Of a stretch of 64,000 nucleotides of DNA, positions 2,458 to 24,268 are shown piece after piece. Origin of the DNA: Corynebacterium incognita (lineage in GTDB: Bacteria > Actinomycetota > Actinomycetes > Mycobacteriales > Mycobacteriaceae). The stretch covers positions 1,178,001 through 1,242,000 of the forward strand of contig NZ_CP059404.1 of assembly GCF_014217255.1 (NCBI RefSeq), in the 5' to 3' direction. The position numbers and the translations under genes are program-made. The notes beneath the pieces were generated by a model. The model had not been told where the DNA came from. It searched no databases and saw only the letters and a list, made by a program, of their open reading frames with translations. How positions within the stretch are numbered: the first letter of the stretch is position 1; each line of letters starts with the position of its first letter.

Positions 2458-4545
2458 ATGACCACTTCCACCATCGTCCCCTCCTTCCTCCAAGGCCAGT
2501 GGGTTACCCCGCAGGACCCGCAGCGGGTCAAAGAGGTCCACGATCCGTCGACAGGCGAACTCGTCGCGCGTGTGAGCGCCGAGGGCCTGGACGTCGCCAC
2601 GGCCATCGATTACGCCCGCACCACCGGACGCCAAGGCCTGCAGGAGCTCACCATCCACGAGCGCGCGCTGAAGATTAAGGAGCTGGCGCTTTACCTGCAG
2701 GAGCATGCCGACGTCCTGAAGGAGCTCGCGCACAAGACAGGCGCGAACAAGCGGGACAACTTCCCGGACATCGACGGCGGCATCTCCACGCTGTTTACCT
2801 TCTCCTCCAAGGGCCGCCGTGAAATGCCGAACGCCCACGTGGTTACCGACGGCGAGCCGGAAAACTTCTCCAAGGACGGCTCGTTCATCGGCCGCCACAT
2901 TTACACCTCCATCCCGGGCATCGCGGTGCAGATCAACGCCTTCAACTTCCCTGTCTGGGGCATGCTGGAAAAATTCGCCCCGGCGTTCATCGCGGGCGTT
3001 CCCACCTTGGTCAAGCCCGCCACACCGACCGGCTACGTCACCGCCGAGTGTGTGCGCCTCATGGTGGAATCCGGCGTGCTGCCGGAGGGCTCCATCCAGC
3101 TCATCTCCGGTTCGGCGCGCGACCTGCTGGACCACCTGGATTACCGCGACCACGTGGCTTTTACCGGTTCTGCGGCCACTGCGCATTCCCTGCGCGCGCA
3201 CCCCAACGTCATCGAGGGCGGCGTGACCTTTACTGCTGAGGCGGACTCGCTCAACGCTGCTATTTTGGGCGCCGACGCCACCGCCGACACCCCGGAGTTC
3301 GCCGCCTATGTCAAGGCCGTATTCGGGGAGATGACCGCGAAGGCGGGCCAGAAGTGTACGGCCATCCGCCGCGCCATCGTGCCCCATGACCTGGTCCAGC
3401 CCTTCGTTGAGGCCCTCACCCAGCGCCTAGAGGACAAGGTCGTGCTCGGCGATCCGCGCGACGCACACGCCACGATGGGCCCGTTGGTGTCCGCCGAGCA
3501 GCGTGACGACGTCGCGTCTGCCGTCGCCGCCCTAGCAAACGCCGGCGGGCAGGTGGTCTACGGTGGCCAGGACGCCCCGGAAGGACTCGACGGCGCTTTC
3601 TTCACGCCCACCATCCTCACCTTCGATGACAACCGGACCCCGGAAGTGCACTCGGTGGAGGCCTTCGGCCCGGTGGTCTCCGTCATCGGCTACGACACCA
3701 CTGAGGAGGCCGTGGAGTTGGCCGCGCTCGGCGCCGGTTCGCTCGTCGCCTCGGTGATCACTCACGACGCCGACATCGCCGCCACCATCGGCCGCGGCAT
3801 CGCGGCGCACCACGGCCGCCTGCACTTCCTCGACCGCGACGACGCCAGGATGTCGACAGGCCATGGCTCTCCCCTGCCGCACCTCATCCACGGCGGCCCG
3901 GGTCGCGCGGGCGGCGGCGAGGAACTCGGCGGCGTGCGCGGCATCAAGCACTTCATGCAGCGCACCGCCGTGCAGGGCACCCCGGATCACCTCACCGCGG
4001 TGACCGGCCAATGGCACCGCGGCGCGGCGGTTAATAAGGTCACCCGGGCCGACGTGGACGCCGGGACCGGCGTGCACCCGTTCCGCAAGGACTTGGCCAC
4101 GCTCACGATCGGCGATCAGTTCGCCTCCGACCTGCGCAAGGTGACCCTGCAGGAGATCCTCGACTTCGCGGAGACCACCGGCGATACCTTCTACGCGCAC
4201 ACCAACGAGGAAGCCGCGATGGCCAACCCGTTCTTCCCGCGCCGGGTGGCCCACGGCTACCTGCTGGTCTCCTGGGCGGCGGGTCTGTTCGTGGAGCCGG
4301 CGCCGGGTCCGGTGCTGGCCAACTACGGCCTGGAGAACCTGCGGTTTGTGGAGCCTGTCACCTACGATGACTCCATCCGCATCGAGCTCACGGCCAAGCA
4401 GATCACCCCGCGCGTGACCGACGAGTACGGCGAGGTGCGCTGGGACGCAGCCCTGTTCAACCAGGACGACGTCATGGTGGCCACCTACGATGTGCTCACC
4501 CTCGTGGAGAAGGTGGACACCACCTACGCGGCCAAGCAGTCGTAG
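2458..4545 (+). CDS. paaZ: PaaZ: bifunctional oxepin-CoA hydrolase / semialdehyde dehydrogenase
   Basis: A 695-residue fusion of two enzymes. Residues 1 to about 520 are an aldehyde dehydrogenase with general base Glu261 (TAEADSLN) and nucleophile Cys300 (GQKCT). Residues about 530-690 are a MaoC-like hotdog hydratase with the Asp576/His581 pair in GDTFYAH. In the phenylacetate route the hydratase opens oxepin-CoA and the dehydrogenase oxidises the resulting semialdehyde, so the reactive aldehyde passes between domains. Length matches the known family. An AAAGGAACG ribosome-binding sequence precedes the ATG. The 33-bp gap to the divergent paaI must hold at least part of its expression signals. 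Confidence 0.92.
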   Translation: MTTSTIVPSFLQGQWVTPQDPQRVKEVHDPSTGELVARVSAEGLDVATAIDYARTTGRQGLQELTIHERALKIKELALYLQEHADVLKELAHKTGANKRDNFPDIDGGISTLFTFSSKGRREMPNAHVVTDGEPENFSKDGSFIGRHIYTSIPGIAVQINAFNFPVWGMLEKFAPAFIAGVPTLVKPATPTGYVTAECVRLMVESGVLPEGSIQLISGSARDLLDHLDYRDHVAFTGSAATAHSLRAHPNVIEGGVTFTAEADSLNAAILGADATADTPEFAAYVKAVFGEMTAKAGQKCTAIRRAIVPHDLVQPFVEALTQRLEDKVVLGDPRDAHATMGPLVSAEQRDDVASAVAALANAGGQVVYGGQDAPEGLDGAFFTPTILTFDDNRTPEVHSVEAFGPVVSVIGYDTTEEAVELAALGAGSLVASVITHDADIAATIGRGIAAHHGRLHFLDRDDARMSTGHGSPLPHLIHGGPGRAGGGEELGGVRGIKHFMQRTAVQGTPDHLTAVTGQWHRGAAVNKVTRADVDAGTGVHPFRKDLATLTIGDQFASDLRKVTLQEILDFAETTGDTFYAHTNEEAAMANPFFPRRVAHGYLLVSWAAGLFVEPAPGPVLANYGLENLRFVEPVTYDDSIRIELTAKQITPRVTDEYGEVRWDAALFNQDDVMVATYDVLTLVEKVDTTYAAKQS

Positions 4546-6449: not shown

Positions 6450-6776
6450 AACTAAGGCATACCCGGCCACCACTGGTCCCGCAATGGTTTGCCAAACACA
6501 GGCAACCAAGGGCCATCAAATGTAAAAATCCCGCAATTCTTTCAATGAGACGCCCTTCAGCACGTGCCTAATGCTAAAAATCGACGGATTCTTTCACTTA
6601 GCCATCCTCCGAGGCTCTTGGAACTAACCCGAATCGACCTTCCAGCGATTCAATCTTTTCGTTTTGAGTCTCAAAACCGTGACAAAGAGACGTGCATCAC
6701 GTACAGTGGCGTACATTCCGGAACAATTTTTATTTTTTGTAACACTTCGTACAAACCGCACTCTTGAGGATTTTCA
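6450..6776. other. Gene-free A/T-rich junction upstream of the permease
   Basis: No convincing gene. Base composition drops abruptly here from the surrounding high-GC sequence to A/T-rich sequence, marking the left edge of the island that follows. Near 6690-6715 there is a small symmetric element (CGTG, three bases, CACG) followed by two GTAC boxes, and a T-rich tract at about 6723-6740. These could be promoter/operator sequence for the permease gene, but I cannot assign hexamers with confidence. Confidence 0.4.
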
Positions 6777-8228
6777 ATGGAGAACTCAAAAACTCATGAC
6801 GCTGAGTCTCGAACAAACTCGCCCCCGGTTCAAGCTAGGAAACTAAACAGCTGGGAAGTAACAGCGATCTCGGTCGGCTTCATGGGGCCAGTCATGGCCA
6901 TGTCCTTAAATGGAATTGGCGTAGCAGGATTAGTCGGCAAAGCTGTGCCGCTGACATTCTTTGTTGCGTTCATTGGCACACTTTTCGTTGGATACGCATT
7001 CATCCGACTTCTACGCGAATTCACGCATGCAGGCAGCGTATACGCGCTGTCCGGAATTACGCTGGGCCCTAAAGCAGGCTTCTTCGGCGGTTTCGCATTG
7101 CTAGGTACCTACACCTTTTTGACTGCGTGCATCCTCGGCGCTTGCTCAGTCTTTTTTGAAGCGATGGCACTCGAATTGGGAGCAACGCCTCCCGGGAAAC
7201 TCTGGATCGCAGTTCCCATACTTGTGGGTCTAAGCGGCCTCTTCCTAAACCTCCGCAATTCGCAAGTTGCCGCCCGAATTACTTTGATAATTGGCCTCGT
7301 TGGAATCCTGGTCATGCTGATACTGGCGGTAATAATCATCAGCAAGGTAGGCAGCCCCAACGCCCCAGTAACTACCGGCGTTGACTGGGCGGCGTTCTCC
7401 CCAAGGGAAGCAACGTGGGATGGGATTTTGACGGCCTCGGTGTTCGCATTCATCTCCTGGGCAGGCTTTGAATCTGGCTCTGCGCTTGGCGAAGAGACTA
7501 AAGAACCCAAGAAAGTTATTCCTCGGTCTCTCTTAGCGGCTATCACCGTTGGAGGCACCGTTTACGTCTTCATCATGTTTGCCCAGACCCTTGGTTACGG
7601 AACAGATGCTGCAGGAATCGAAAAATTCGCTAACGCTTCTTCCACGCTCACTGAATTGGCATCCATGTACGTCGGCAGTTGGTACTCAATTCTTTTGTCA
7701 GTAATTGCGTTTGCTGTCGCGTTTGGCGCCTACCTAAGTTCTTCGACCGCTACATCGCGACTGCTTTTCGCACTCGCCCGTGATGGTTTTGGCCCTCACT
7801 CTTTCGCAACGCAGAATCCGCGCACACAAGTCCCTACTCACGCGGTTATTTTTACGAATACGGCCACTGTGCTGATGACCGTCGTCCTCGGCTTATTCGG
7901 CGCAACAAACGTTGAAGCCTACTACTGGTATGCCACCATCGGAACCCTGTGCATGGTCATCGCCTACGGCATGGCCTCAGTGGGTGCGATCAAGTACATC
8001 TGCAGCAGGACTTCGACCATCCCGACATTCGAAGTCATCTTCCCCATTATTTCGCTGATTTACCTCGTGTTTGTGTTCTTCGTCCAGATTGTGGGGCAAG
8101 AACCTCCATACACCTACTTCCCATGGATTGCGGGCGGTTGGTGCTTACTCGGCCTCGTTATCGTTCTTTCGAGGCCCAATCTCACCAAGCGTATCGGCAG
8201 AAAGATGGCGTCGTTCCATGCAGACTAA
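6777..8228 (+). CDS. APC-superfamily amino acid/amine permease
   Basis: A 483-residue protein with about 12 hydrophobic segments. The first helix has the APC signature SVGFMGPVMAMSLNGIG, and FAFISWAGFESGSALGEETKEPKKVIPRSL matches the family's helix 6-loop region. It would import an amino acid, amine or small amide. It is the first gene of a low-GC cluster followed by a glutamine-synthetase-like ligase, two hydrolases and an RpiR regulator, so it probably brings in the substrate of that pathway. The start codon follows a TGAGGA ribosome-binding sequence. Confidence 0.85.
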   Translation: MENSKTHDAESRTNSPPVQARKLNSWEVTAISVGFMGPVMAMSLNGIGVAGLVGKAVPLTFFVAFIGTLFVGYAFIRLLREFTHAGSVYALSGITLGPKAGFFGGFALLGTYTFLTACILGACSVFFEAMALELGATPPGKLWIAVPILVGLSGLFLNLRNSQVAARITLIIGLVGILVMLILAVIIISKVGSPNAPVTTGVDWAAFSPREATWDGILTASVFAFISWAGFESGSALGEETKEPKKVIPRSLLAAITVGGTVYVFIMFAQTLGYGTDAAGIEKFANASSTLTELASMYVGSWYSILLSVIAFAVAFGAYLSSSTATSRLLFALARDGFGPHSFATQNPRTQVPTHAVIFTNTATVLMTVVLGLFGATNVEAYYWYATIGTLCMVIAYGMASVGAIKYICSRTSTIPTFEVIFPIISLIYLVFVFFVQIVGQEPPYTYFPWIAGGWCLLGLVIVLSRPNLTKRIGRKMASFHAD

Positions 8229-8265
8229 ACAGTTCTCTCAAAAATTAACGAAAGAAAGGTCAACC

Positions 8266-9582
8266 ATGAAAAATACGGACGCAGCCGACCAGAAGAACAT
8301 CTTCACCTTCCTTGCCACCTGTGATATCTCGGCACGCACTAAAGGCCGTGCAATTCACAATAAAGACTTCACACCGGATTCCAGCGTCGGCTGGGTGCCG
8401 GCAAACCTCGGCATTGGGCCTCTCGGCCACATCGTCGGTGGAATCCCCTATGGCTCATCGGGCGATGTCCGTTTAAAAGCCGATGCCTCCTCTCTCACCA
8501 CCATCTCCGGGATTCCCGGACAATCTGATATCAACTATTGCTTCACCGACATTGTCAATACCGATGGCAGCCCTTGGGAGTCGTGTAGCCGCACGTTCCT
8601 GAAGAACGCATTGAAAGAGCTCGAGGAAACTCACGATGTCTCGATGACTGCCTCATTCGAGCATGAGTTCGTCGAACGCGCAGCCTCACGTCATCCGCAC
8701 CCATTTTCGTTCTCCAATTTCATCACTGCTGAACCCATCAGCAGTACCCTTTTTCAAATTCTGGAAAATGCAGGTCTTGAGCCAGAATGCTGGCTACCGG
8801 AGTACGCCGAGCACCAGTACGAGTTAACGATGAAGCCCTCCGATCCCCTTACTGCAGCGGACCGTGCGCTTCTTCTCCGCGACATCACTACGAACGTATA
8901 TCGCGCCTTCGATAGCGAAGTCACCTTCAGCCCCGTAGCGACTGCAGAAACAGGTGGCTCTGGTGTTCATGTGCACTACGGTTTGTACGGCCGCAACGGT
9001 GAAGCGATTTCGTTCGACCCAGAACGTCCGGGACGCGTGTCTGATTTTGCTGCGAAATTCAATGCAGGCGTTATTAAGTATGCTCCGGCGCTGACGGCAA
9101 TCTTTGCCCCGCTCACTATCAGCTATTTACGTTTAAAGCCCGACAATTGGTCCACCGCACGAGCATTTTGTGGCCTACAAAACCGTGAAGCACTGGTTCG
9201 AATTTGCCCAACCAATGAGATCAATGGCAAAGATCCAGCCCCACAGGTCCACTTTGAATTCCGTGGAGCAGACGCCGGCGCCAACCCTTGGATCCTGATG
9301 GGATGTATCATTCGCGCAGGTCTAGCAGGCCTCGAAGAAGACCTGGATCCGGTGCAAATTGTAGAGGGGGATTTGGATCTTGACGGGATTCACAAGAATC
9401 TTCCGGAACTCCCCTCCTCTCTGGAAAAGGCACTAGAGTTATTCGAAGAAAATCCGACCGTGCGATCTTGGTTCAGCGAGGCGTGGGTAGAAACGTTCCT
9501 TAAAGTTAAACGGGATGAGATCGACCAACTCACGGGCAAGTCATTTGACGAACAGTGCGAGGTGTACGCAGATGTCTACTGA
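8266..9582 (+). CDS. Glutamine synthetase family ligase (not housekeeping GlnA)
   Basis: A 438-residue protein of the glutamine synthetase fold. Visible are the beta-grasp N-terminus, the metal-site helix ASFEHEFVER (about residues 128-137), TGGSGVHVHYGL (the ammonia/ATP-site region) and a C-terminal region with VHFEFRGADAGANPWILMG. It is shorter and more divergent than GlnA and lacks an obvious adenylylation-site Tyr context, so it more likely joins glutamate (or a related acid) to an amine, as in gamma-glutamyl-amine pathways or FluG. The ATG follows AAAGAAAGG. The last codons overlap the next gene's start, indicating tight coupling. Confidence 0.8.
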   Translation: MKNTDAADQKNIFTFLATCDISARTKGRAIHNKDFTPDSSVGWVPANLGIGPLGHIVGGIPYGSSGDVRLKADASSLTTISGIPGQSDINYCFTDIVNTDGSPWESCSRTFLKNALKELEETHDVSMTASFEHEFVERAASRHPHPFSFSNFITAEPISSTLFQILENAGLEPECWLPEYAEHQYELTMKPSDPLTAADRALLLRDITTNVYRAFDSEVTFSPVATAETGGSGVHVHYGLYGRNGEAISFDPERPGRVSDFAAKFNAGVIKYAPALTAIFAPLTISYLRLKPDNWSTARAFCGLQNREALVRICPTNEINGKDPAPQVHFEFRGADAGANPWILMGCIIRAGLAGLEEDLDPVQIVEGDLDLDGIHKNLPELPSSLEKALELFEENPTVRSWFSEAWVETFLKVKRDEIDQLTGKSFDEQCEVYADVY

Positions 9583-10798
9583 TCAAGCTGCCGACAACAA
9601 CACATTTAGTCGTCCATCGGAGGACCTCGAGCAACATATCAATGGGCTTCCGTTGTTCGATCACCACTGCCATGGCGTTGTTGATTTTGAATTAGACCGT
9701 ACCAACTTTGAAGCATTGATCTCGGAATCTTCAAGTCCACCCACTCCGGGTACCACTAGATTCGATTCACAGATTGGTTTTAGCATCAGGGCTCAATGCT
9801 CGCCTCTTTTGGGATTGCCACCGTTTAGTTCTCCGGACGAATACATTGAAGCGCGAAAAGCTGCCGGTAGCGAAGCTGTCAATCGCAAGTTCTTAGAAGC
9901 GAGCAAGATATCTGCCTACGGAGTAGACACCGGCCACGCAGGCGATATGATTACCAGTTTTCAGGATTTCAATGTTCTTACTGATAATCGATGTATCGAA
10001 ATTGTGCGACTAGAACGAACTGCAGAAGAAGTCGCAGAACGCCTCAGGACCCAATCCCCTGGCCAGACCATCGACCACGAAGTGGTTGACTACTACATCA
10101 ACCAGCTGGACGAGACTCTTGAATCGCGCATCAACGACTCGTTTGGCGTCAAGTCAATCGCGGCGTACCGCATCGGATTGGATTTTGATCCCTCTCGCCC
10201 ACGAGTAGAGGATGTAAAGAACGCAACACATCGATTCTTGGAAACCGAAGGCCAATTTCGCCTGTCTGAACCAGATTTGATTCGTTATCTCTTATGGTTC
10301 GCCATCGACCGGCAGAAGGTGATTCAGTTCCACATCGGTTACGGTGACGATGACGTGGATCTGCTTCGCTGCAATCCTCTCCACCTGACTACGCTCTTAC
10401 GTCAAACAATTGGATCTGGGGCGCAATTCACCCTTCTGCACTGCTATCCGTTCCACCGAGAGGCGGGGTATCTCGCTGACGTGTTCCCCCATGTCTATTT
10501 TGACGTGGGACTTGCGATTAACTACACCGGTGCCCGCTCTGCCGCGATTATCGCTGAGTCACTCGAAACGGCTCCATTCGGAAAAATCCTTTTCAGCACC
10601 GATGCATTTGGCCTGCCCGAACTGTATTACTTAGGCACCGCCCTCTTTAGAGAAGGCTTGACTAGAGCCCTAAGTCAGTTTCATGTCCATTCAGGATGGC
10701 CCTTAGAAGAATGCACAAGGGTCGCCGATCTAATCGCCACCCACAATGCTGCGCGCGTTTACTCCTTTGAGCCAAAACCACTCCTTCCCATTGGTTGA
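9572..10798 (+). CDS. Amidohydrolase-2 family metal-dependent hydrolase
   Basis: A 408-residue TIM-barrel amidohydrolase. Metal ligands are recognisable as the HxH in FDHHCHGVVD near residue 30, the His in LLHCYPFH, and the Asp in ILFSTDAFGLPE near the C-terminus. The start (MSTDQAADN) lies inside the 3' end of the ligase gene, an 11-bp overlap. Amidohydrolase plus glutamine-synthetase domain is the arrangement of the fused FluG proteins, so these two genes look like a split FluG pair. The natural substrate is unknown. It probably hydrolyses or decarboxylates a product of the pathway. Confidence 0.8.
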   Translation: MSTDQAADNNTFSRPSEDLEQHINGLPLFDHHCHGVVDFELDRTNFEALISESSSPPTPGTTRFDSQIGFSIRAQCSPLLGLPPFSSPDEYIEARKAAGSEAVNRKFLEASKISAYGVDTGHAGDMITSFQDFNVLTDNRCIEIVRLERTAEEVAERLRTQSPGQTIDHEVVDYYINQLDETLESRINDSFGVKSIAAYRIGLDFDPSRPRVEDVKNATHRFLETEGQFRLSEPDLIRYLLWFAIDRQKVIQFHIGYGDDDVDLLRCNPLHLTTLLRQTIGSGAQFTLLHCYPFHREAGYLADVFPHVYFDVGLAINYTGARSAAIIAESLETAPFGKILFSTDAFGLPELYYLGTALFREGLTRALSQFHVHSGWPLEECTRVADLIATHNAARVYSFEPKPLLPIG

Positions 10799-10818
10799 TC
10801 CCTGTTAGGCGGAATTGA

Positions 10819-11991
10819 ATGAAGATTGAAACCAGTACACTCATTGAACAATGGAATGTTCATCTCCACGCCGAGCTCGATCGCGCTAACTTGTTGCGAC
10901 AGACTATCCACCAGTCACCATGTCTTAGTGGACAAGAGCAAACAACAACCGACCTTGTCACGGAAGCAATGGAGCTCACCTTCGAGACTGTCGCGGGGAC
11001 GGGCGCGATTGCCGCGCTTGGGCCATCAGACGGCCCCGCCATCGCAGTGCGTGCGGAACTAGACGCCCTTCCGGTCTTGGAAGAAACGCCTGTGGCGTGG
11101 AAGTCCATCAATGGCGCGATGCATGCCTGCGGTCACGACGTACATCTAGCTGCACTTACTGCGGTGGTGCGTGCGGCGAAGAAGCTCGCGCTCCCTTATA
11201 CCCTTGTTCCCTTCCTTCAACCGCGTGAAGAGACTTACCCCTCTGGGGCCCTAGATATAAAAGAATCTGGGGTATTTGACGCCTACCGCGTCAAACGCGC
11301 AATAGGAGCGCACGTTCATCCCGCCGTTCCGCTGGGTTCTGTTTCTTCAGGTGGCGGGTTCGTCAATGCTGCCGCTGGTGAATTATCGATTTCTGTACAA
11401 GGACAAGGCGGGCACGGGGCCTACCCTCACAAAGCAAACGACGTCGCGGTCTGCACCGCACAGATAGCTACGGCTATCGCCGAGATTGTTCGTAGAACGG
11501 TTGATCCTATGCTTCCCGCCCTCGTGAGCATCGGGTCAATAAATGTCGGTTCCGGCGCCGCGAATGTCCTGCCTGGACAAGGTACTATTCTCGCTACTGT
11601 TCGTGGGCCTAATAGGGAGACCAATCAGGCTATAGTATCGGCCGTTGAGGACTTCTCTCGCGCCACGGCTAAAGCTTTTGGTTGTGCTGCCAATGTCGAA
11701 TATTCACCCGGGGAGCCTGCCTTAATTAACGACGACAATCTCGCAGACCATTTCGTGCACACTGCACATGCAATCGGCCTCTCAACGTTCGAGCCGATGC
11801 GTTCACTGGGCGCTGACGACTTTTCTTACTACGGCGACCTAGTTCCCAGCCTGATGTGTTTTGTAGGGACACAAACGGGTAATATTCCTTCGCTTCACGA
11901 TGCCAAGTTCCTTCCCCCAGAGGAAGCTGTTCTTAGAACTGCGCAGTGCTTTATCGCTGGCTACGCGGCTGCTGCCGAGGCACTGCAATAA
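10819..11991 (+). CDS. M20-family amidohydrolase (aminoacylase/IAA-amide hydrolase type)
   Basis: A 390-residue M20D-type metallohydrolase. The metal motif MHACGHDVHLAALTAVV is at about residues 97-113, REETYPSGA holds the Glu pair region, GAHVHPAVPLGSV follows, and a dimerisation domain with GQGGHGAYPHKANDVA is present. Such enzymes cleave N-acyl amino acids or amides, and the corynebacterial N-acyl-glutamine aminoacylase that releases skin odorants is in the same family, though this protein is not obviously its ortholog. It is 20 bp downstream of the amidohydrolase and cotranscribed with it. The substrate is presumably an amide made or imported by the cluster. Confidence 0.82.
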   Translation: MKIETSTLIEQWNVHLHAELDRANLLRQTIHQSPCLSGQEQTTTDLVTEAMELTFETVAGTGAIAALGPSDGPAIAVRAELDALPVLEETPVAWKSINGAMHACGHDVHLAALTAVVRAAKKLALPYTLVPFLQPREETYPSGALDIKESGVFDAYRVKRAIGAHVHPAVPLGSVSSGGGFVNAAAGELSISVQGQGGHGAYPHKANDVAVCTAQIATAIAEIVRRTVDPMLPALVSIGSINVGSGAANVLPGQGTILATVRGPNRETNQAIVSAVEDFSRATAKAFGCAANVEYSPGEPALINDDNLADHFVHTAHAIGLSTFEPMRSLGADDFSYYGDLVPSLMCFVGTQTGNIPSLHDAKFLPPEEAVLRTAQCFIAGYAAAAEALQ

Positions 11992-12012
11992 ACGGATAGA
12001 GATAAAGCCTTC

Positions 12013-12888
12013 ATGATCGAAAAGCCAAGTGTCACAGAAAAGATTAATCAAGCCTTTGAAGGGTTGTCTTCCTCTGAAAAGCGTGTTGCACGTTCACTGC
12101 TCACAAACTACCCTTTTGCGGCTTTGGAAAGTGTCAATGATCTTTCCAATTCCGCCGGAGTTAGTTCAGCGACAACGGTACGTTTCGTGCAAGCCCTCGG
12201 ATATGGCGGCTTTCGAGAATTCCAACAGGAAATAAAAGAAGAACTGCAGGAAAGGCAAAATTCTGCTGCCTCGCTTGCGACGCTAGGGAACTCCCACACT
12301 GACGATGTCGAGCCACCAGGAACCGAGGACTCAATTCTCGGGCAATCACTCGATAGCTACATCGAAGGCATTAAAGCTACATTCGAACATCTGCGAAAGT
12401 CCGAAGTCCACCAGACCATCGAATGGCTTTCAAATTCAAAGATGCCCATTATCGCTGATGGCGGAGACTTTTCTAAACTCCTGGCTCATCACCTCACCGC
12501 GCAACTCTCCCTTTTCCGGGCGCAAGTGGTCACTCTGCCAAGTAACGATGTCGCGGCTACCGCGGTGATTAATGGAATTTCGGCAAAAACCTTGTGGGTT
12601 ACCTTTGATTTCCGGCGCTACGATGTGGCGACAGAACGGCGTGCGAAGCTCGCAAAAGACCGAAATGCAAAAGTAGTATTGGTGACTGATAGGTGGCTTT
12701 CCCCTATCGCAACCTTTGCTGATGTAGTCCTTTCAGCGAGAGTCGCAGCCCACGGGCCCTCAGACACCCTGGTTCCAGCAATGGCGCTTGTAGAGGCATT
12801 ATGTGAAGAAGCTGCCGATCGGACTGGAGAAAACGGGCTTTCGCACTTGAAAGACTTTGAATCACTCCGCTCTACACTCAGGCCCTAG
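12013..12888 (+). CDS. RpiR/MurR-family transcriptional regulator
   Basis: A 291-residue protein with an N-terminal RpiR-type helix-turn-helix (LSNSAGVSSATTVRFVQALGYGGFREFQQEI, about residues 43-73) and a C-terminal SIS domain (about 125-270) that normally binds a phosphosugar or related ligand. It ends the low-GC catabolic cluster 21 bp after the M20 gene and is the natural candidate for its local regulator. The PTS promoter about 45 bp downstream carries a palindrome over its -10 box and could also be a target; that is inference. Confidence 0.85.
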   Translation: MIEKPSVTEKINQAFEGLSSSEKRVARSLLTNYPFAALESVNDLSNSAGVSSATTVRFVQALGYGGFREFQQEIKEELQERQNSAASLATLGNSHTDDVEPPGTEDSILGQSLDSYIEGIKATFEHLRKSEVHQTIEWLSNSKMPIIADGGDFSKLLAHHLTAQLSLFRAQVVTLPSNDVAATAVINGISAKTLWVTFDFRRYDVATERRAKLAKDRNAKVVLVTDRWLSPIATFADVVLSARVAAHGPSDTLVPAMALVEALCEEAADRTGENGLSHLKDFESLRSTLRP

Positions 12889-12999: not shown

Positions 13000-13815
13000 A
13001 TGTCCACCTTGAATGACCTGCTCGCCCAAGGAGCCGTTGAATTGCACGGCTCCGCGGCGACGTGGGAGGAAGCTATTTCTACTGCTGGAAACCTGCTCGA
13101 ACGATCTGGCGCAATTTCCAGCGACTACACCACTGCGATGATCCAGTCAGTCAAAGAAAACGGACCTTATATCGTCGTCGCGCCCGGCTTCGCTTTTGCA
13201 CATGCCCGCCCATCGGAAGCGGTTCATCGCACCGCCATGTCCTGGCTCCGCGTGGACTCCCCAGTCGAGTTCGGGCACGACTCCAATGATCCGGTCACGC
13301 TCGTCGTCGCCCTGGCTGCCGAAGACGCTTCCACGCACTTGGCTGCCATGAAGGAACTCGCCCGACTCTTGGGCAAACCCGCGATTCGGCAGCGTCTTGA
13401 TTCGGTGACTTCAGAAGATGAACTCCGCGATCTGCTCGAAGAGCAAGCACGCAAGAAGTCCGTTGCGTCTACCGCCGCCACCGCAAGCGTAGACGCGCAC
13501 CATGACACCGCTGCCGACTCCGTGGAATCCAAAGGAAAGGTACTCACCGTCTGCGGCAATGGCCTCGGCACTTCCTTATTCCTCAAGAACACCCTGGAAC
13601 AGGTCTTGGACGAGTGGGGCTGGGGCCCGCTCATCAACGTCGAAGCAACAGACACTATCTCCGCCAAAGGCCGAGCAAAGGAAGCTGATTTCCTCCTCAC
13701 CTCCGGAGAGATTGCTGCCACGCTAGGTGACGTTGGCGTTCCAGTTTATGTCATCAAAGATTTCACGTCTCACATCGAAGTCGATGCCGCCCTGCGCGAG
13801 CTCTACGACGTCTAA
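13000..13815 (+). CDS. PTS EIIA-EIIB fusion, ascorbate (SgaA/SgaB) type
   Basis: A 271-residue cytoplasmic phosphotransfer protein. Residues 1 to about 150 are an EIIA of the mannitol/ascorbate fold with the phospho-accepting His68 in FAFAHARPSEAV. After an Ala-rich linker, residues about 178-271 are an EIIB with phospho-Cys185 in VLTVCGNGLGTS. It passes phosphate from HPr to the incoming sugar in complex with the EIIC encoded 9 bp downstream. An AGGAAGGA ribosome-binding sequence precedes the ATG. The family transports L-ascorbate or a similar acid sugar; no UlaG/UlaD-type catabolic genes are adjacent, so the substrate is uncertain. Confidence 0.88.
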   Translation: MSTLNDLLAQGAVELHGSAATWEEAISTAGNLLERSGAISSDYTTAMIQSVKENGPYIVVAPGFAFAHARPSEAVHRTAMSWLRVDSPVEFGHDSNDPVTLVVALAAEDASTHLAAMKELARLLGKPAIRQRLDSVTSEDELRDLLEEQARKKSVASTAATASVDAHHDTAADSVESKGKVLTVCGNGLGTSLFLKNTLEQVLDEWGWGPLINVEATDTISAKGRAKEADFLLTSGEIAATLGDVGVPVYVIKDFTSHIEVDAALRELYDV

Positions 13816-13824
13816 GGAACAGTC

Positions 13825-15396
13825 ATGGACATTCTCATTTCAATCGCAAACTTCCTCGTCAACGAGATTCTTTCCGTTCCGGCATTCCTCATCGGCATCA
13901 TCACCGCCGTGGGCCTGGCCGCCATGAAACGCGGAACCGGCAAGGTGCTGGGTGGCGCTATCAAGGCGACGCTCGGATTCCTCCTCATCGGCGCCGGCGC
14001 CAACCTCGTCGTCGCCTCGCTGGAACCACTCGGCACGATGATTCAAGGCGCCACCGGCGCGCAGGGTGTGGTGCCCACCAACGAGGCCATCGTGGGTATC
14101 GCCCAGGAACAGTTCGGTTCTCAGGTGGCCTGGATCATGATCCTCGGCTTCGTCGTGTCGCTGGTCCTGGCTCGGTTTACCCCGATGAGCTACGTCTTTT
14201 TGACCGGCCACCATGTTCTCTTCATGGCCACCATGCTCACGATGGTCATGGCGCCTGCAGGCTACTCCCCGTGGGTCGTCATCGGGCTCGGCGCGGTCCT
14301 TTTGGGCATCCTCATGGTCTCGCTGCCCGCCATCGCCCACCCGTGGACCCGGCGCGTCACCGGCGATGACTCTATCGCCATCGGCCACTTCGGCACCGCG
14401 GGCTACGTTGCGGCAGGCGCCGTCGGCAAGCTCGTCGGTGGCAAGGGGCCAAAGCAGTCGCCCTCCACCGAGGAGCTCAAGCTTCCGGAGGGCCTGCGGT
14501 TCCTCCGCGATTCCATGGTTGCCACCGCACTGTCCATGGCGTTGATGTACATCGTTTTGGCGCTGCTCTTTATTGCTCGTGCTGGCACGGAAGAGGCCTT
14601 CAAGGCTTTCGAAGGTGGGGCCACCAACGTTGGCAACTACCTCATGCAGTCCTTCACCCAAGGCCTGCAATTCGGCGTAGCAGTGGCAGTCATCTTGTTC
14701 GGCGTCCGCACCATTTTGGGTGAGCTCGTCCCGGCTTTCCAAGGCATCGCGGCGAAGGTTGTTCCCGGCGCTATCCCCGCACTCGACGCCCCTATCGTCT
14801 TCCCCTACGCCCAAAACGCCGTGCTCATTGGCTTTATTACGTCGTTCACCGGCGGCCTTATCGGCCTGGCTATCCTCAGCTCGTGGCTCAACCCGGCGTT
14901 TGGCGTAGCCCTCATCCTCCCGGGCCTCGTTCCCCACTTCTTCACCGGCGGCGCGGCAGGCGTGTACGGCAACGCCACGGGCGGTCGCCGCGGCGCCATC
15001 TTTGGTGGCCTCGCCAATGGTCTCCTCATCACGTTCCTTCCCGCGTTCCTACTGGGCGTGCTGGGTTCCTTCGGTGAGGCCAACACCACCTTCGGTGATG
15101 CGGACTTCGGCTGGTTCGGCATGCTCATCGGTTGGGCATCGCGTGCCGACGGCGCCGTGGGCCTCGTGCTGATCGCCCTCGTCGGCCTCGCAGTACTTGC
15201 TCTCGGTTGGTTCTCGCAGACCAAGCTGGTTGCCACCAACTGGGATCCGACCCCATGGCGCGAGGCAACGAATGCAAGCACCGTACCTGCCGATGCCACC
15301 GGGAACGCGCCCAAGGATCCAGTACGCACCTCGGGCAGCTACCCGAAGGTGCTTCCCCCCAAGGGCGCTCCGGTGCCCCCGCCTCGTCCGGAGTGA
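13825..15396 (+). CDS. PTS EIIC, ascorbate/UlaA-SgaT type
   Basis: A 523-residue membrane permease with about 11-12 hydrophobic segments between residues 1 and 470. It includes the UlaA-like FFTGGAAGVYGNATGGRRGA and a GNGLG-independent SgaT/UlaA architecture. A hydrophilic Pro/Ala-rich tail follows. It forms the transport channel for the EIIAB protein encoded just upstream. The substrate is L-ascorbate by family, but related sugars are possible. No dedicated terminator is evident in the 79 bp before the next gene. Confidence 0.87.
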   Translation: MDILISIANFLVNEILSVPAFLIGIITAVGLAAMKRGTGKVLGGAIKATLGFLLIGAGANLVVASLEPLGTMIQGATGAQGVVPTNEAIVGIAQEQFGSQVAWIMILGFVVSLVLARFTPMSYVFLTGHHVLFMATMLTMVMAPAGYSPWVVIGLGAVLLGILMVSLPAIAHPWTRRVTGDDSIAIGHFGTAGYVAAGAVGKLVGGKGPKQSPSTEELKLPEGLRFLRDSMVATALSMALMYIVLALLFIARAGTEEAFKAFEGGATNVGNYLMQSFTQGLQFGVAVAVILFGVRTILGELVPAFQGIAAKVVPGAIPALDAPIVFPYAQNAVLIGFITSFTGGLIGLAILSSWLNPAFGVALILPGLVPHFFTGGAAGVYGNATGGRRGAIFGGLANGLLITFLPAFLLGVLGSFGEANTTFGDADFGWFGMLIGWASRADGAVGLVLIALVGLAVLALGWFSQTKLVATNWDPTPWREATNASTVPADATGNAPKDPVRTSGSYPKVLPPKGAPVPPPRPE

Positions 15397-15475: not shown

Positions 15476-17149
15476 GTGAACGAACACTCTATTATCATCG
15501 TCGGCACCGGCCTGGCCGGCCTGGTCGCGGGCTACGAGGCCGCCCGCGCAGGCAAGCATGTCATCTTCCTCGACCAGGAGAACCGCGCCAACCTTGGCGG
15601 CCAGGCCTTCTGGTCCCTCGGCGGCCTGTTCTACGTTGCCTCGCCCGAGCAGAAGTTCATGCGGATCACCGACTCCGAGGCGCTGGCCTGGCGCGACTGG
15701 GAGAATTCCGCTGCGTACGACGATGCCCCGCACGATGATTGGCCGCGCCGCTGGGGCCGGGAGTTCGTCCGCTTTGCCGCCGGCGAGATGCGCCCCTACC
15801 TCAAAAACCTAGGCCTCAACGTCCTGCCCACGGTGGGCTGGGCCGAGCGCGGCGCCGGCGACGCCTCCGGGCACGGCAATTCCGTCCCGCGCTTCCACTT
15901 GACCTGGGGCACCGGGCCCGAAGTTGTCCGCGTCTTCCGTGAGCCGCTGGAGGAATTCGAGCGCCAGGGTCGCGTCGAGTTCCACTTTCGCCATCAGGTG
16001 GACGAGCTGATCGTTGACCCCACCCATCATCGCATCACCGGCGTCAAGGGCTCCGTCCTCGAGCCCTGCGACGATCTGGAGCGCGGCGCCGCCTCCCCAC
16101 GGGGCGTCGTCAAGCACTTCGAACTCCGCGGCGCCGCCGTGGTCATTGCCACCGGCGGCATCGGCGGTAACCTGGACAAAGTCCGCGCCTCCTGGCCCAC
16201 GCAGCGCTGGGGCACCTGCCCGCCGGAGCTCGTCCGCGGCGTGCCCGCGCATGTGGACGGCCGCGGCATCGACGTCGCCGCCACTGCCGGCGCCCACCTA
16301 GTCAACACCGACCGCATGTGGCACTACCCCGAAGGCATGACCAACTGGTCGCCCATCTGGCCTGACCACGGCATTCGTATCATCCCCGGCCCGTCGTCGC
16401 TGTGGCTGGACGCCTCCGGCACGCGCCTTCCCACCAACCTCTTCCCCGGCTCCGACAACCTCGCCGCGCTGTCCCACATCGGCCGCACGGGGCACGGCTA
16501 CTCGTGGTTCCTGCTCAACCAGACCATCGCGGACAAGGAGTTCATCTTCTCCGGCTCGGAGCAAAACCCGGATCTGACGGACAAGTCGTTCCGTAAGCTC
16601 GCGGGCAAGCTCTCCCCCGGCACCCACGTGGCCATCCGCGCGTTCATGGATAACGGCATCGACTGGTGCATCGCTGAGAACCTCGATGACCTCGTCCAAC
16701 AGATGAACGATCTGGCGCCTGCCGACGCCCCCTCCATCGAGCCGGCCGCACTCCGCACGGTTGTTGAGGATCGCGACAGCCAGCTGAACAACCCGTTCAG
16801 CAAGGACATCCAAGTCAACTACATCCGCACCGCCCGCGGCTTCCTCGGCGATAGGATCGTTCGTTGCGCTCCCCCACACAAATTGCTTGACGACGCCCAC
16901 GGTCCCCTCATCGCCGTTCGACTCAAGGTTCTCACTCGCAAAACCTTGGGCGGCATTGAGACTGACTTGGACGGCCAGTGCCTCACTGACACCGGCCAAC
17001 CCATCCCCGGCCTGTACGCTTGCGGCGAGGCCGCCGGTTTCGGCGGCGGAGGCATGCACGGCAAAAACGCCCTGGAAGGCACCTTCCTCGGCGGCTGCAT
17101 CCACTCCGGCAAGCGCGTCGGCGAAGCCCTGGGCGCGTTCGGTCATTAG
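15476..17149 (+). CDS. FAD-binding dehydrogenase (fumarate reductase/KsdD-like fold)
   Basis: A 557-residue flavoprotein. The N-terminal dinucleotide motif IIIVGTGLAGLVAGYEAARAG (about residues 6-26) is followed by NLGGQAFWSLGG. A second nucleotide segment is VVIATGGIGGN, and the C-terminus has GLYACGEAAGFGGGGMHGKNALEGTFLGG, the FAD-ribityl motif of the FAD_binding_2 family. The best match by eye is the predicted FAD-binding dehydrogenases (COG3573-like) related to fumarate reductase and 3-ketosteroid dehydrogenase; substrate unknown. It starts at GTG. It may be read through from the PTS genes. Confidence 0.8.
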   Translation: MNEHSIIIVGTGLAGLVAGYEAARAGKHVIFLDQENRANLGGQAFWSLGGLFYVASPEQKFMRITDSEALAWRDWENSAAYDDAPHDDWPRRWGREFVRFAAGEMRPYLKNLGLNVLPTVGWAERGAGDASGHGNSVPRFHLTWGTGPEVVRVFREPLEEFERQGRVEFHFRHQVDELIVDPTHHRITGVKGSVLEPCDDLERGAASPRGVVKHFELRGAAVVIATGGIGGNLDKVRASWPTQRWGTCPPELVRGVPAHVDGRGIDVAATAGAHLVNTDRMWHYPEGMTNWSPIWPDHGIRIIPGPSSLWLDASGTRLPTNLFPGSDNLAALSHIGRTGHGYSWFLLNQTIADKEFIFSGSEQNPDLTDKSFRKLAGKLSPGTHVAIRAFMDNGIDWCIAENLDDLVQQMNDLAPADAPSIEPAALRTVVEDRDSQLNNPFSKDIQVNYIRTARGFLGDRIVRCAPPHKLLDDAHGPLIAVRLKVLTRKTLGGIETDLDGQCLTDTGQPIPGLYACGEAAGFGGGGMHGKNALEGTFLGGCIHSGKRVGEALGAFGH

Positions 17150-17163
17150 GACTCACTTACACC

Positions 17164-17329
17164 CTCAGTGGCACCTTCATGTGCAGAGTTGTAATACTCA
17201 GTGGGAATTTACAACAAGATTCCCACTGAGCTTTCTCAATTCCCACTGAGAACAACAGTAGAGGTCAGGCCACTATTTTCCCTTGTCAACTGCATCACTT
17301 GGAATCCATTTTTGGCGTTTTCCCACTGA
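17164..17329. repeat. Cluster of TCCCACTGA motifs, possible IS21-type terminal repeats
   Basis: The motif TTCCCACTGAG or its complement occurs at about 17164-17171 (partial), 17197-17208, 17219-17230, 17239-17250 and 17319-17329. The second and third form a perfect 12-bp inverted repeat with a 10-nt loop. Multiple short end repeats of this kind (AGTGGGAAT-like) are typical of one end of IS21-family elements, but no istA/istB gene is present, so this would be a remnant. The rest of 17150-17445 holds no gene. Confidence 0.45.
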
Positions 17330-17445
17330 AGAATCATTTCCAACTCTCACCAAAACAAGCGAACCATCAGGACCGCTCCGCTGCTTAGCCGGTTCCGCGA
17401 GACCCAATCACTCCAAGCACGCAGGGCTACGAAAACGGAGAGAAC

Positions 17446-19658
17446 ACCGGGGGTCAGCTCTCGAAACCCCTGATAGACTTCACCGGGAAGCCCCGCCGTA
17501 AATACCTCTGCTGGGGTTCAATTCTCGAAACCCCTGATAGACTTCATGAACACCAACCACCCGTCAACCACCAGCTGGGGTTCAATTCTCGAAACCCCTG
17601 ATAGACTTCTCTACTCATCGTCCCGCTCCCTATCTAGGCTGGGGTTCAATTCTCGAAACCCCTGATAGACTTCACAGGTGAGATGGCCGTCATCGCGGAC
17701 CAGCTGGGGTTCAATTCTCGAAACCCCTGATAGACTTCCTTACGAGCAACAGCATCACGGTCATCCGCTGGGGTTCAATTCTCGAAACCCCTGATAGACT
17801 TCAATCGTGACCAGTACGCCCGCGTCCTCAGCTGGGGTTCAATTCTCGAAACCCCTGATAGACTTCTAAGCCGCGCCAGCAACCCAGACTCATCGCTGGG
17901 GTTCAATTCTCGAAACCGCTGATAGACTTCCACCGCGGGGAACCGCGTCCTGGTACATGCTGGGGTTCAATTCTCGAAACCCCTGATAGACTTCCCGGGA
18001 TACGCCCATCATCCACGCACCGGCTGGGGTTCAATTCTCGAAACCCCTGATAGACTTCCGCCCCATGATCCCAACCTTCGGCCCATGCTGGGGTTCAATT
18101 CTCGAAACCCCTGATAGACTTCGTTACGCACCAGACGAATCACTGCATCAGCTGGGGTTCAATTCTCGAAACCCCTGATAGACTTCAACTTAGAGTTGCG
18201 TGAGTCCAGGTGGAGCTGGGGTTCAATTCTCGAAACCCCTGATAGACTTCCGCCGCATCCACGAGTACTGGGCGACGTGCTGGGGTTCAATTCTCGAAAC
18301 CCCTGATAGACTTCCTCCCAGCCATCGCAGATGAGCTAGAGGGCTGGGGTTCAATTCTCGAAACCCCTGGTAGACTTCGCGAACGTGTGGAACCGCGCCC
18401 GTGAAGGCTGGGGTTCAATTCTCGAAACCCCTGATAGACTTCGGTGTCCCCCGCGTTGAGTGCGTCGATGGCTGGGGTTCAATTCTCGAAACCCCTGATA
18501 GACTTCCATGAAGTTTCACCCCCGCGTCACCGAGGCTGGGGTTCAATTCTCGAAACCCCTGATAGACTTCGTCGGCGACGGAACAAGCCCTTTTCCATGC
18601 TGGGGTTCAATTCTCGAAACCCCTGATAGACTTCCTGGCTGACCGGCGCGCTCGCTACCAGCGCTGGGGTTCAATTCTCGAAACCCCTGATAGACTTCGC
18701 ATGGCCTGGGATAACGGAGGGCAACCGCTGGGGTTCAATTCTCGAAACCCCTGATAGACTTCAGTTCAGCGACATACCGCGGTGCGGCAGGCTGGGGTTC
18801 AATTCTCGAAACCCCTGATAGACTTCCCAGGACACCTACCCACTGCCCCTCATCGCTGGGGTTCAATTCTCGAAACCCCTGATAGACTTCAAAGCACTAG
18901 AACCATGACCCCACACGAGCTGGGGTTCAATTCTCGAAACCCCTGATAGACTTCACACCCGTATCCTTGCCATCCTGCGTGCGCTGGGGTTCAATTCTCG
19001 AAACCCCTGATAGACTTCGGGAAAGGAATCTTCATCGTCACGGACTGCTGGGGTTCAATTCTCGAAACCCCTGATAGACTTCGACCATCGCATCTGGATG
19101 GAGCTGGAACGCTGGGGTTCAATTCTCGAAACCCCTGATAGACTTCTTCTCGTCCAGGTTAATCTCCTGGTACTGCTGGGGTTCAATTCTCGAAACCCCT
19201 GATAGACTTCGGATGCGTTACCGCGAGCTGCTCGCTCTGCTGGGGTTCAATTCTCGAAACCCCTGATAGACTTCTGTTAGTCACGGTTGTCTCCTTTTCT
19301 GTGCTGGGGTTCAATTCTCGAAACCCCTGATAGACTTCGTTTCCGCCGCCGCAAGCTCCGGCAACTGCTGGGGTTCAATTCTCGAAACCCCTGATAGACT
19401 TCCAAACGGGCCAGCCGTCACAGACTCGGAGCTGGGGTTCAATTCTCGAAACCCCTGATAGACTTCCAAACGGGCCAGCCGTCACAGACTCGGAGCTGGG
19501 GTTCAATTCTCGAAACCCCTGATAGACTTCGGGTGCAGGTGCGTGAAGATTTTTCTACGCTGGGGTTCAATTCTCGAAACCCCTGATAGACTTCATCTGC
19601 ATCCCGCCAAGGGTTGATGCATGCTGGGGTTCAATTCTCGAAACCCCTGATAGACTTC
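17446..19658 (+). CRISPR. Type II-C CRISPR array, 35 repeats and 34 spacers
   Basis: Repeats are 36 bp, beginning GCTGGGGTTCAATTCTCG and ending CCCCTGATAGACTTC. Spacers are 28 bp (64-bp period), except one of 29 bp at 17674-17702. The first repeat (17446-17481) has a degenerate 5' third. The repeat at 17895 has C-to-G at position 24 and that at 18343 has A-to-G at position 28; the others appear identical. Two spacers (19403-19430 and 19467-19494) are the same sequence. Pairing with the tracrRNA fixes the crRNA strand as +, opposite to the cas genes. Repeat positions 26-34 (TGATAGACT) match an extended -10 promoter, so each spacer can be transcribed separately. Open frames crossing the array are artefacts. 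Confidence 0.98.
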
Positions 19659-19708
19659 AGTTAAGTCGAAAAATCGCCTTTAACTGGGGTCTTTTCGGGG
19701 TCCCTTCG

Positions 19709-20930: not shown

Positions 20931-20932
20931 TG

Positions 20933-24247: not shown

Positions 24248-24268
24248 CAAGACAGTCCCTTCGGGTAG

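What the first reader, a model, noticed from the sequence alone, without database searches (positions are those of the whole stretch)
6777..12888. Low-GC catabolic island with a split FluG-like core and M20 hydrolase
APC permease, glutamine-synthetase-like ligase, amidohydrolase, M20 amidohydrolase and RpiR regulator are packed with overlaps or about 20-bp gaps, and differ in base composition from all flanking DNA. The ligase-amidohydrolase pair mirrors the two halves of FluG. A coherent hypothesis is import of an amine or amide, gamma-glutamylation by the ligase, and stepwise hydrolysis by the two amidohydrolases. I know of no described pathway with exactly this set, so it is the best candidate here for an undescribed system. 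Odorant-type N-acyl amino acids or amines are possible substrates.
Basis: partly seen in the sequence, partly recalled or inferred. Interest (0 to 1): 0.7.

Follow-up and report, generated by a model that had tools for sequence, protein, structure and literature searches.

The report
Split FluG-like amide-degradation operon
A Corynebacterium chromosome carries a conserved, apparently transferred set of five genes whose two central enzymes match the halves of the unsolved fungal development protein FluG, and gene neighbours in related bacteria suggest that it degrades small cyclic amides or amino acid amides through a glutamate-tagged intermediate.

Summary
In detail: five genes (APC permease, glutamine-synthetase-like ligase, TIM-barrel amidohydrolase AH2, M20 hydrolase, RpiR regulator) are packed at 6777-12888, the lowest-GC stretch of the window. 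The ligase is not a glutamine synthetase: it lacks both ammonium-site acids, groups with PA5508 and FluG, and the genome has two other GlnA-type genes. AH2 plus ligase align end to end with a fungal FluG (97% coverage, 25% identity), all seven AH2 catalytic residues kept. The set recurs: of 80 ligase loci, 75 have AH2 nearby, 59 have ligase-AH2-M20 in a row, 38 have all five genes. New is the substrate context. An alpha-amino-caprolactam-racemase-like enzyme shares the locus in 25 of 80, lysine-type decarboxylases in 11, and a paralogue of MftD (which acts on an alpha-amino lactam) in 7. On proteobacterial plasmids a related ligase and racemase occur together with other hydrolases. I propose mask-cleave-unmask degradation of alpha-amino amides or lactams: the ligase glutamylates the amine, AH2 cleaves the amide, M20 removes the glutamyl group. 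No reaction is demonstrated; racemase and decarboxylase are absent from the Corynebacterium carriers. The odorant idea is not supported.

The parts
6661..6677 (.). Perfect inverted repeat GTTTTGAG-T-CTCAAAAC upstream of the APC gene; candidate operator for the RpiR regulator (unproven)
   Evidence: 8-bp arms, 1-base spacer; a relaxed pattern for this repeat occurs once in the window and in none of the other loci held, apart from the overlapping stretch of the same genome.
6777..8228 (+). APC-superfamily amino acid permease (483 aa), probable importer
   Evidence: PF13520 118 bits; best solved matches are amino acid transporters 6f34/5oqt and cationic amino acid transporters, 48 down to 22 bits; relatives of 34-66% identity share the locus with the ligase in many genomes.
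8266..9582 (+). Glutamine-synthetase-like gamma-glutamyl ligase (438 aa), FluG C-terminal half equivalent
   Evidence: PF00120 211.5 bits; best solved match PA5508/4hpp 250 bits, model TM 0.90 to 4hpp; D50->V44 and E327->W295 while metal and glutamate residues are kept.
9572..10798 (+). Amidohydrolase-superfamily TIM-barrel enzyme AH2 (408 aa), FluG N-terminal half equivalent
10819..11991 (+). M20 amidohydrolase/aminoacylase (390 aa)
   Evidence: TIGR01891 221 bits, above its cut-off of 153.75; solved relatives YxeP, 4ewt, IAA-amino acid hydrolase, AgaA.
12013..12888 (+). RpiR-family regulator with SIS domain (291 aa)
   Evidence: PF01418 57.5 bits and PF01380 44.5 bits; an RpiR homologue lies within 6.5 kb of the ligase in 50 of 80 loci.

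Best explanation
This is a laterally mobile catabolic operon that works as a glutamyl relay on alpha-amino amides, most likely alpha-amino lactams such as lysine lactam (alpha-amino-epsilon-caprolactam) or ornithine lactam. Steps: (1) the APC permease imports the cationic amide; (2) the GS-like ligase spends ATP to attach the gamma-carboxyl of glutamate to the free alpha-amine (mask); (3) AH2, a binuclear-zinc amidohydrolase, cleaves the amide or opens the lactam and frees the alpha-carboxylate; (4) the product is now an N-acyl amino acid, the kind of bond M20 aminoacylases cut, so M20 releases glutamate and the amino acid (unmask); (5) RpiR controls the operon. In relatives an aminocaprolactam-racemase-like enzyme would bring in the D-form and a lysine-type decarboxylase would use the product. 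Shown here: gene content, conservation, catalytic-residue pattern, FluG homology, neighbours. Inferred: every reaction, its order and the substrate. My estimates: ligase makes a gamma-glutamyl amide rather than glutamine 0.9; all three enzymes act in one pathway 0.8; alpha-amino amide or lactam substrate class 0.45; the exact order given 0.4.
For: Conservation: of 80 ligase loci, AH2 near in 75, ligase-AH2-M20 consecutive in 59, all five genes within about 6.5 kb in 38. Not GlnA: the two other Gln-synt_C genes of the genome and E. coli GlnA lie across a 0.97 split, and ammonium-site D50/E327 are V/W in all eleven rows of the ligase clade and in PA5508. FluG: joined AH2+ligase hits Aspergillus steynii FluG over 97% at 25% identity; all seven AH2 catalytic residues kept, FluG C-half falls with ligase+PA5508 at 0.99. 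Substrate context: racemase-like neighbour at 41% identity or more in 25 of 80 loci; its profile scores ACL racemases 3dxw and 2zuk at 508.5 and 505 bits, an amino acid amide racemase 479, Ile epimerase 334, GABA transaminase 274; [quoted passage not shown] Background: such an enzyme (E 1e-80) in 5 of 394 class genomes, four candidates scored per genome. OKR decarboxylases in 6+5 of 80 loci (families). A MftD paralogue lies beside the ligase in 7 loci; MftD oxidises the amine of the alpha-amino-pyrrolidinone AHDP (PMC7491314, PMC8728441 passages). Plasmids: ligase and racemase-like gene within 8 kb in 28 of the 28 records printed in both hit lists; four such regions read have RpiR, an isochorismatase-type hydrolase and N-formylglutamate amidohydrolase instead of AH2/M20.
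Confidence: 0.42

Rival explanations
1. Aromatic or bulky monoamine catabolism. The ligase glutamylates an amine as PA5508 does, AH2 is the gamma-glutamyl hydrolase, and M20 acts separately on imported N-acyl amino acids.
For: PA5508 is the closest solved relative and prefers bulky amines (Ladner 2012 as described in PMC6478659). GS-like ligases for aromatic amines are established (PMC11335346 passages).
Against: Among neighbour clusters shared by four or more loci no oxygenase, amine oxidase or aldehyde dehydrogenase was recognised (not every neighbour was annotated; aldehyde-dehydrogenase-like genes lie in three loci, L008, L018, L083; a GMC oxidoreductase recurs in seven). The racemase-like neighbour is unexplained.
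Confidence: 0.17
2. Diamine or polyamine use (PuuA-type): lysine is decarboxylated to cadaverine, which the ligase glutamylates, followed by deamination by the class III enzyme.
For: OKR decarboxylases in 11 of 80 loci, one type closest to 6q6i (738 bits) and to LdcC/CadA-type enzymes; gamma-glutamylputrescine synthetase is the best NCBIfam match of the ligase (196 bits, far below its 650 cut-off).
Against: No PuuB/C/D counterparts recognised among recurring neighbours; the class III neighbours score with ACL racemase, not with putrescine or GABA transaminases; no decarboxylase counted in 69 of 80 loci (two weak 29-32% matches, L058 and L072, were not counted) and none in the seven Corynebacterium genomes.
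Confidence: 0.12
3. Lactone or thiolactone version of the same relay (homoserine lactone or homocysteine thiolactone as substrate, with AH2 as a lactonase).
Against: Lysine-type decarboxylases and the MftD paralogue point to amides or lactams.
Confidence: 0.1
4. N-acyl-glutamine or other odorant precursor salvage.
For: M20 belongs to the aminoacylase subfamily TIGR01891; AgaA is among its solved relatives.
Against: AgaA is only the fourth solved match (139.8 bits, behind YxeP 165.3); the same operon recurs in genera such as Microbacterium, Nocardioides and Streptomyces, which are not tied to skin (recalled); the scheme gives the ligase no role.
Confidence: 0.06
5. Biosynthetic or signalling role like FluG: the pair makes a glutamylated signal instead of degrading a nutrient.
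For: End-to-end homology with FluG, which is needed for conidiation (PMC6478659).
Against: Permease, RpiR regulator, racemase, decarboxylase, patchy distribution (7 of 242 Corynebacterium genomes) and plasmid carriage of related sets look catabolic.
Confidence: 0.06

Closest known systems
FluG of Aspergillus (N-terminal amidohydrolase + C-terminal gamma-glutamyl ligase)
   Same: Both halves homologous end to end; all seven AH2 catalytic residues and the Trp at the GS E327 position are kept.
   Different: Two separate genes in the order ligase-AH2, with permease, M20 and RpiR; FluG is a fusion in the order AH2-ligase needed for sporulation, substrate unknown (PMC6478659).
PA5508 (PauA7, 4hpp) of Pseudomonas aeruginosa
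   Same: Closest solved relative of the ligase (250 bits; TM 0.90); same replacement of ammonium-site acids.
   Different: 33% identical in the structural alignment; the gene context of PA5508 was not examined here.
LSEI_0440 (2qpx), Lactobacillus TIM-barrel hydrolase
   Different: 27% identical; activity unknown (PMC6478659).
Puu pathway, Streptomyces GlnA4 ethanolamine pathway, aniline/1-naphthylamine (GoaS) pathways
   Same: Open with ATP-dependent gamma-glutamylation of an amine by a GS-like ligase (PMC6529630, PMC11335346 passages).
   Different: They use oxidases, aldehyde dehydrogenases, dioxygenases and GATase-type hydrolases; here AH2, M20 and, in relatives, an ACL-racemase-like enzyme.
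Alpha-amino-epsilon-caprolactam racemase (Achromobacter obae, 3dxw)
   Same: Among the best matches of the class III neighbour in Actinobacteria, 508.5 bits.
   Different: Not in this window or genome; a native pathway of the racemase was not found in the papers searched.

Membership tests
Glutamine synthetase type I (GlnA) | Acidic ammonium-site residues D50 and E327 | tested here: not met
   V44 and W295 in the window ligase; E327 kept in own GlnA1 and GlnA2, D50 kept in GlnA2 (the GlnA1 row does not reach it). The D50 column depends on the alignment: one search placed Gly58 there, also not acidic.
Glutamine synthetase type I (GlnA) | Clusters with ammonia-assimilating GlnA | tested here: not met
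   GlnA1, GlnA2 and E. coli GlnA lie across a 0.97 split from the group of ligase, PA5508 and PuuA.
Gamma-glutamyl amine ligases (GoaS / PA5508 type) | Metal and glutamate residues kept, ammonium acids lost, grouping with PA5508 | tested here: met
   E129, E131, E212, E220, H269, R321, R339, E357, R359 all kept in the window ligase; grouping with PA5508 0.87-0.94.
Gamma-glutamyl amine ligases (GoaS / PA5508 type) | Enzymatic glutamylation of an organic amine | not testable with these tools
   Needs purified protein.
FluG | Amidohydrolase with H20, H22, K192, Y197, H264, H298, D354 | tested here: met
   H32, H34, K194, Y199, H254, H290, D344 align with the equivalent residues of A. steynii FluG; residue list from PMC6478659.
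FluG | Both activities in one polypeptide | tested here: not met
   Two genes overlapping by 11 bp. Hence FluG-like pair, not FluG.
FluG | Control of asexual development | not testable with these tools
   No such process in Corynebacterium (general knowledge).
Putrescine (Puu) pathway | PuuB oxidase, PuuC dehydrogenase and PuuD hydrolase beside the ligase | tested here: not met
   None of the five window genes is one of these, and none was recognised among the recurring neighbour clusters annotated in relatives; not every neighbour was annotated. E. coli puu cluster listed for comparison.
AgaA odorant aminoacylase | M20 enzyme closest to AgaA | tested here: not met
   YxeP 165.3, 4ewt 163, IAA-amino acid hydrolase 140, AgaA 139.8 bits.
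M20 aminoacylase subfamily TIGR01891 | Score above the curated cut-off | tested here: met
   221 bits against 153.75.
Alpha-amino-lactam degradation | ACL-racemase-like gene in the same locus | tested here: not met
   Absent in this Corynebacterium, present in 25 of 80 loci of relatives; so the window is filed as 'works like', not as a proven member.

The most novel reading that the evidence does not exclude
The operon is an undescribed glutamyl relay for alpha-amino lactams and amides: glutamylate the amine, open the ring with the FluG-type hydrolase, remove glutamate with an aminoacylase. Proteobacteria run the same relay with unrelated hydrolases. FluG would then be the eukaryotic fusion of its first two steps, so FluG's unknown chemistry would be glutamylation plus hydrolysis of an alpha-amino amide or lactam.
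Probability: 0.27. Interest if true: 0.85.

Novelty: new variant of a known kind. Interest (0 to 1): 0.6.

Why it matters
FluG is a long-recognised regulator of fungal sporulation with no known reaction (PMC6478659). A bacterial operon that holds both halves as separate enzymes, with a permease, a third hydrolase and, in relatives, a racemase of known substrate class, gives a short and concrete list of compounds to test. If the relay is right, it also gives a biological setting to alpha-amino-epsilon-caprolactam racemase, an enzyme used in biocatalysis, and a new use of gamma-glutamylation: masking an amine so that an amide next to it can be cut.

Tried and rejected
Rejected: glutamine synthetase; AgaA-type odorant role; Puu-type polyamine route as the main reading. 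RNA genes as the cause of the second low-GC stretch: no Rfam match in 16900-20100 at gathering threshold; it is CRISPR-Cas9. A conserved RpiR operator was sought upstream of the APC gene in eleven relatives' loci and not found.

Led nowhere: text searches for the gene set, for lysine lactam hydrolase, for LSEI_0440 beyond the FluG paper and for later FluG biochemistry found no description. The Mycobacterium nitrogen transcriptome (PMC4617892, passages) did not show this set in the passages seen. Caprolactam degradation in Pseudomonas (PMC6061476, passages) uses an oxoprolinase-type enzyme. For AH2, VIA-align 2 lists only chains ranked by Foldseek, so unlisted folds are not excluded.

Limits of counts: ORFs came from a mechanical six-frame list with a greedy choice, so neighbours can be missed. 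Nine further loci whose class III hit was 32% identical or less were not counted as racemase; 23 of the 25 racemase-like proteins went into the profile. Two weak decarboxylase matches (L058, L072) were not counted. Only the seven loci with a GMC neighbour of 51% identity or more were examined for MftD. The 80 loci are the best 80 of 87 confirmed. In some searches at most four candidates per genome were scored. Of 81 racemase-bearing and 106 ligase-bearing plasmid records, 60 each were printed; the 28 of 28 refers to records printed in both. The two lists used different thresholds (E 1e-80 and 1e-25). In one search one row (own GlnA2) was a wrong reading frame; one search replaced it, and the tree is not used. 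The joined query gave 38 hits; the one FluG was the only hit covering both halves.
Full report
WHAT IS THERE. The window lies in a 2.35-Mb, single-contig genome. I take it as Corynebacterium: the same-genus genome G096 has a contig of 2,607,882 bases, the length given for the contig of Corynebacterium lizhenjunii protein P0008. Five genes run in one direction from 6777 to 12888: an APC permease, a GS-like ligase (most likely ATG 8266), AH2 (ATG 9572, overlapping the ligase by 11 bp), an M20 hydrolase and an RpiR regulator. The stretch has the lowest GC of the window (0.522; GC3 0.48-0.58 against 0.86-0.88 in the two genes to the left). GC3 rises in steps to the right, and a second low-GC stretch at 17-24 kb is a CRISPR-Cas9 locus, so the contrast is real but not unique in the window.

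SPREAD. In the genus the ligase occurs in 7 of 242 genomes, this one included. Of five other Corynebacterium regions read at length, four (L093, L095, L096, L097) carry permease, ligase, AH2 and M20 together; RpiR is in line in L093 and L096, on the opposite strand in L097 and not detected in L095. L094 has ligase, AH2 and M20, with no permease or RpiR detected. The sixth relative was seen only as a 4.3-kb stretch with permease, ligase and AH2 (L086). Beyond the genus, 80 loci were read from genome contigs: AH2 near the ligase in 75, directly downstream in 74; ligase-AH2-M20 in a row in 59; APC-ligase-AH2-M20 in a row in 30; all five within about 6.5 kb in 38. The hosts are mostly Actinobacteria (Gulosibacter, Microbacterium, Agrococcus, Brevibacterium, Nocardioides, Streptomyces and others), with some Chloroflexi; one of the 80, L004, is itself a Corynebacterium. 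Patchy presence and odd composition fit lateral transfer (inference).

THE LIGASE IS NOT GLUTAMINE SYNTHETASE. The genome has three Gln-synt_C genes. One of the other two groups with E. coli GlnA (1.0), the second lies on the GlnA side of a 0.97 split; the window ligase groups with PA5508 (0.87) on the other side. Residues that bind metal and glutamate are kept; the two acids that handle ammonium are Val44 and Trp295 in the window, and V/W in all eleven rows of the ligase clade and in PA5508 (the D50 column depends on the alignment). The same loss marks the ethanolamine ligase GlnA4 and PauA7 (PMC6529630, passages). The AlphaFold model (pLDDT 91.2) matches 4hpp at TM 0.90.

THE FLUG LINK. FluG of Aspergillus is an amidohydrolase fused to a gamma-glutamyl ligase, and its halves can be replaced in the fungus by LSEI_0440 (2qpx) and PA5508 (PMC6478659; outline, passages and part 1 of the Discussion). 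Those two proteins are the closest solved relatives of AH2 (145 bits) and of the ligase (250 bits). A search with AH2 and ligase joined gave 38 hits, one of which covers both halves: FluG of Aspergillus steynii, over 97% of the query at 25% identity. The halves give 29% and 24%. All seven catalytic residues of the FluG hydrolase are present in AH2; FluG carries Trp at the E327 position and falls with ligase+PA5508 (0.99). By plain identity the FluG C-half does not discriminate (24.7% to the window ligase, 26.1% to the own GlnA1 fragment, 28.3% to PA5508); the grouping rests on the tree and the key residues. The phrase 'split FluG core' is thus supported by sequence, with gene order reversed.

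WHAT THE NEIGHBOURS SAY. (a) In 25 of 80 loci a class III PLP enzyme at least 41% identical to the Microbacterium one lies within the 10 kb held on either side, often directly next to the core. Its profile matches alpha-amino-epsilon-caprolactam racemases 3dxw and 2zuk at 508.5 and 505 bits, an amino acid amide racemase at 479, isoleucine epimerase at 334 and GABA transaminase at 274. In 394 genomes of the class such an enzyme (E 1e-80) was found in 5; one of the five, G488, has the ligase 53 bp away, the other four had no ligase at E 1e-75. [quoted passage not shown] (b) Orn/Lys/Arg decarboxylases sit in 11 of 80 loci: six of an LdcC-like type whose best solved match is 6q6i (738 bits; labelled biodegradative arginine decarboxylase, which I recall as a Pseudomonas lysine decarboxylase) and five of a more divergent type. 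(c) In seven loci (Nocardioides, Aeromicrobium, Streptomyces, Gulosibacter) the divergent genes include a protein over the MftD cut-off, a GMC oxidoreductase, a class III aminotransferase (HemL-like in the three checked, L022, L060, L062) and, in at least five, a branched-chain-type ABC permease. In three of these genomes a second, higher-scoring MftD lies elsewhere; in the other four the linked one is the only one over the cut-off. The linked gene is therefore probably a paralogue. MftD's substrate AHDP is a 3-amino-2-pyrrolidinone, an alpha-amino lactam (PMC7491314, PMC8728441, passages). None of the seven is among the 25 racemase loci, which would fit two ways to invert the same carbon (inference). 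(d) NCS1-type permeases sit in 7 loci (families for two). (e) In L073 and L076 (Chloroflexi) and L072 (Actinomycetota) a 231-aa gene sits between permease and ligase; the L073 copy is PF04199.

AN INDEPENDENT ARRANGEMENT. On proteobacterial plasmids a related ligase (29-39% identical) and the racemase-like gene are within 8 kb in 28 of the 28 records printed in both lists. Of six plasmid regions read, three from Rhizobiaceae (L101, L102, L103) and one from Klebsiella (L106) have RpiR, an isochorismatase-family hydrolase, the ligase, N-formylglutamate amidohydrolase and the class III gene; the transporter is ABC-type or, in Klebsiella, an APC (two hydrolase families checked for L102 and L106). 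Roseomonas mucosa (L104) has RpiR, both hydrolases and the ligase plus an M20-type deacylase; it is not in the tally of racemase hits. Deinococcus deserti has the ligase-AH2 pair with an Lrp-type regulator. One Klebsiella record labels the class III gene '2-aminohexano-6-lactam racemase'. AH2 relatives (E 1e-30) were found on 7 plasmid records, none from Rhizobiaceae or Klebsiella. Sulfitobacter, Nitratireductor, Terrarubrum and Paracoccus plasmids have the ligase and no racemase in the tally. So where ligase and racemase coexist on the plasmids read, the hydrolases are of other families.

MECHANISM. The simplest scheme that uses every part is mask, cleave, unmask. The ligase attaches gamma-glutamate to the alpha-amine of an amide or lactam; AH2 cuts the amide; the product is an N-acyl amino acid, the class of substrate M20 enzymes of TIGR01891 cut (general knowledge of the family); M20 returns glutamate and a free amino acid. 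The gene order follows the reaction order. AH2's bridging lysine and metal ligands fit a hydrolase with two metals, as the FluG paper also argues. The racemase explains use of D-forms; the decarboxylase explains a lysine-like product. All reactions are inferred.

WHAT SPEAKS AGAINST IT. The Corynebacterium operons lack the racemase and the decarboxylase, so their substrate may differ. AH2's next-best folds are an uncharacterised amidohydrolase and uronate isomerases, not lactamases. The racemase also occurs without a detected ligase and the ligase without the racemase. Loci share ancestry, so counts are not independent. The amine-catabolism rivals are not excluded.

NOVELTY. Gamma-glutamylation pathways are a known kind (Puu, aniline, ethanolamine). 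This set, with these hydrolases and the racemase link, was not found described in four searches aimed at it or six aimed at its parts of the open full-text library. I rate it a new variant of a known kind, with a bolder reading that would give FluG a testable chemistry.

Noticed in passing
17436-24283: Type II CRISPR locus: array with 64-base period (33 copies listed as one family) followed by Cas1-like and Cas9 (1116 aa) genes on the - strand; also low in GC.
   Followed up: partly
13000-15396: PTS IIAB and ascorbate-type IIC genes directly downstream of RpiR. In L094 (G106) homologues (62% and 79% identical) also lie near the ligase cluster, which hints at a shared insertion site.
   Followed up: no
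2458-4545: PaaZ-type bifunctional phenylacetate degradation gene on the left flank (TIGR02278 1071 bits).
   Followed up: no
15476-17149: FAD-binding dehydrogenase (PRK12834-type, 866 bits) after the PTS genes.
   Followed up: no
L060, L062, L063, L067, L043, L049, L022: MftD-like genes divergent from the ligase, beside a GMC oxidoreductase and a class III aminotransferase; in three genomes a second, better-scoring MftD lies elsewhere. Possibly a catabolic MftD paralogue.
   Followed up: partly
L072, L073, L076: Loci with a second GS-like ligase and a 231-aa gene beside the ligase-AH2 pair and no M20 detected; in L073 the 231-aa gene is a PF04199 'cyclase'.
   Followed up: no
L106: The Klebsiella version of the set lies beside IS66 transposase genes on a 159-kb plasmid; 45 Klebsiella plasmid records carry the racemase-like gene.
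   Followed up: no
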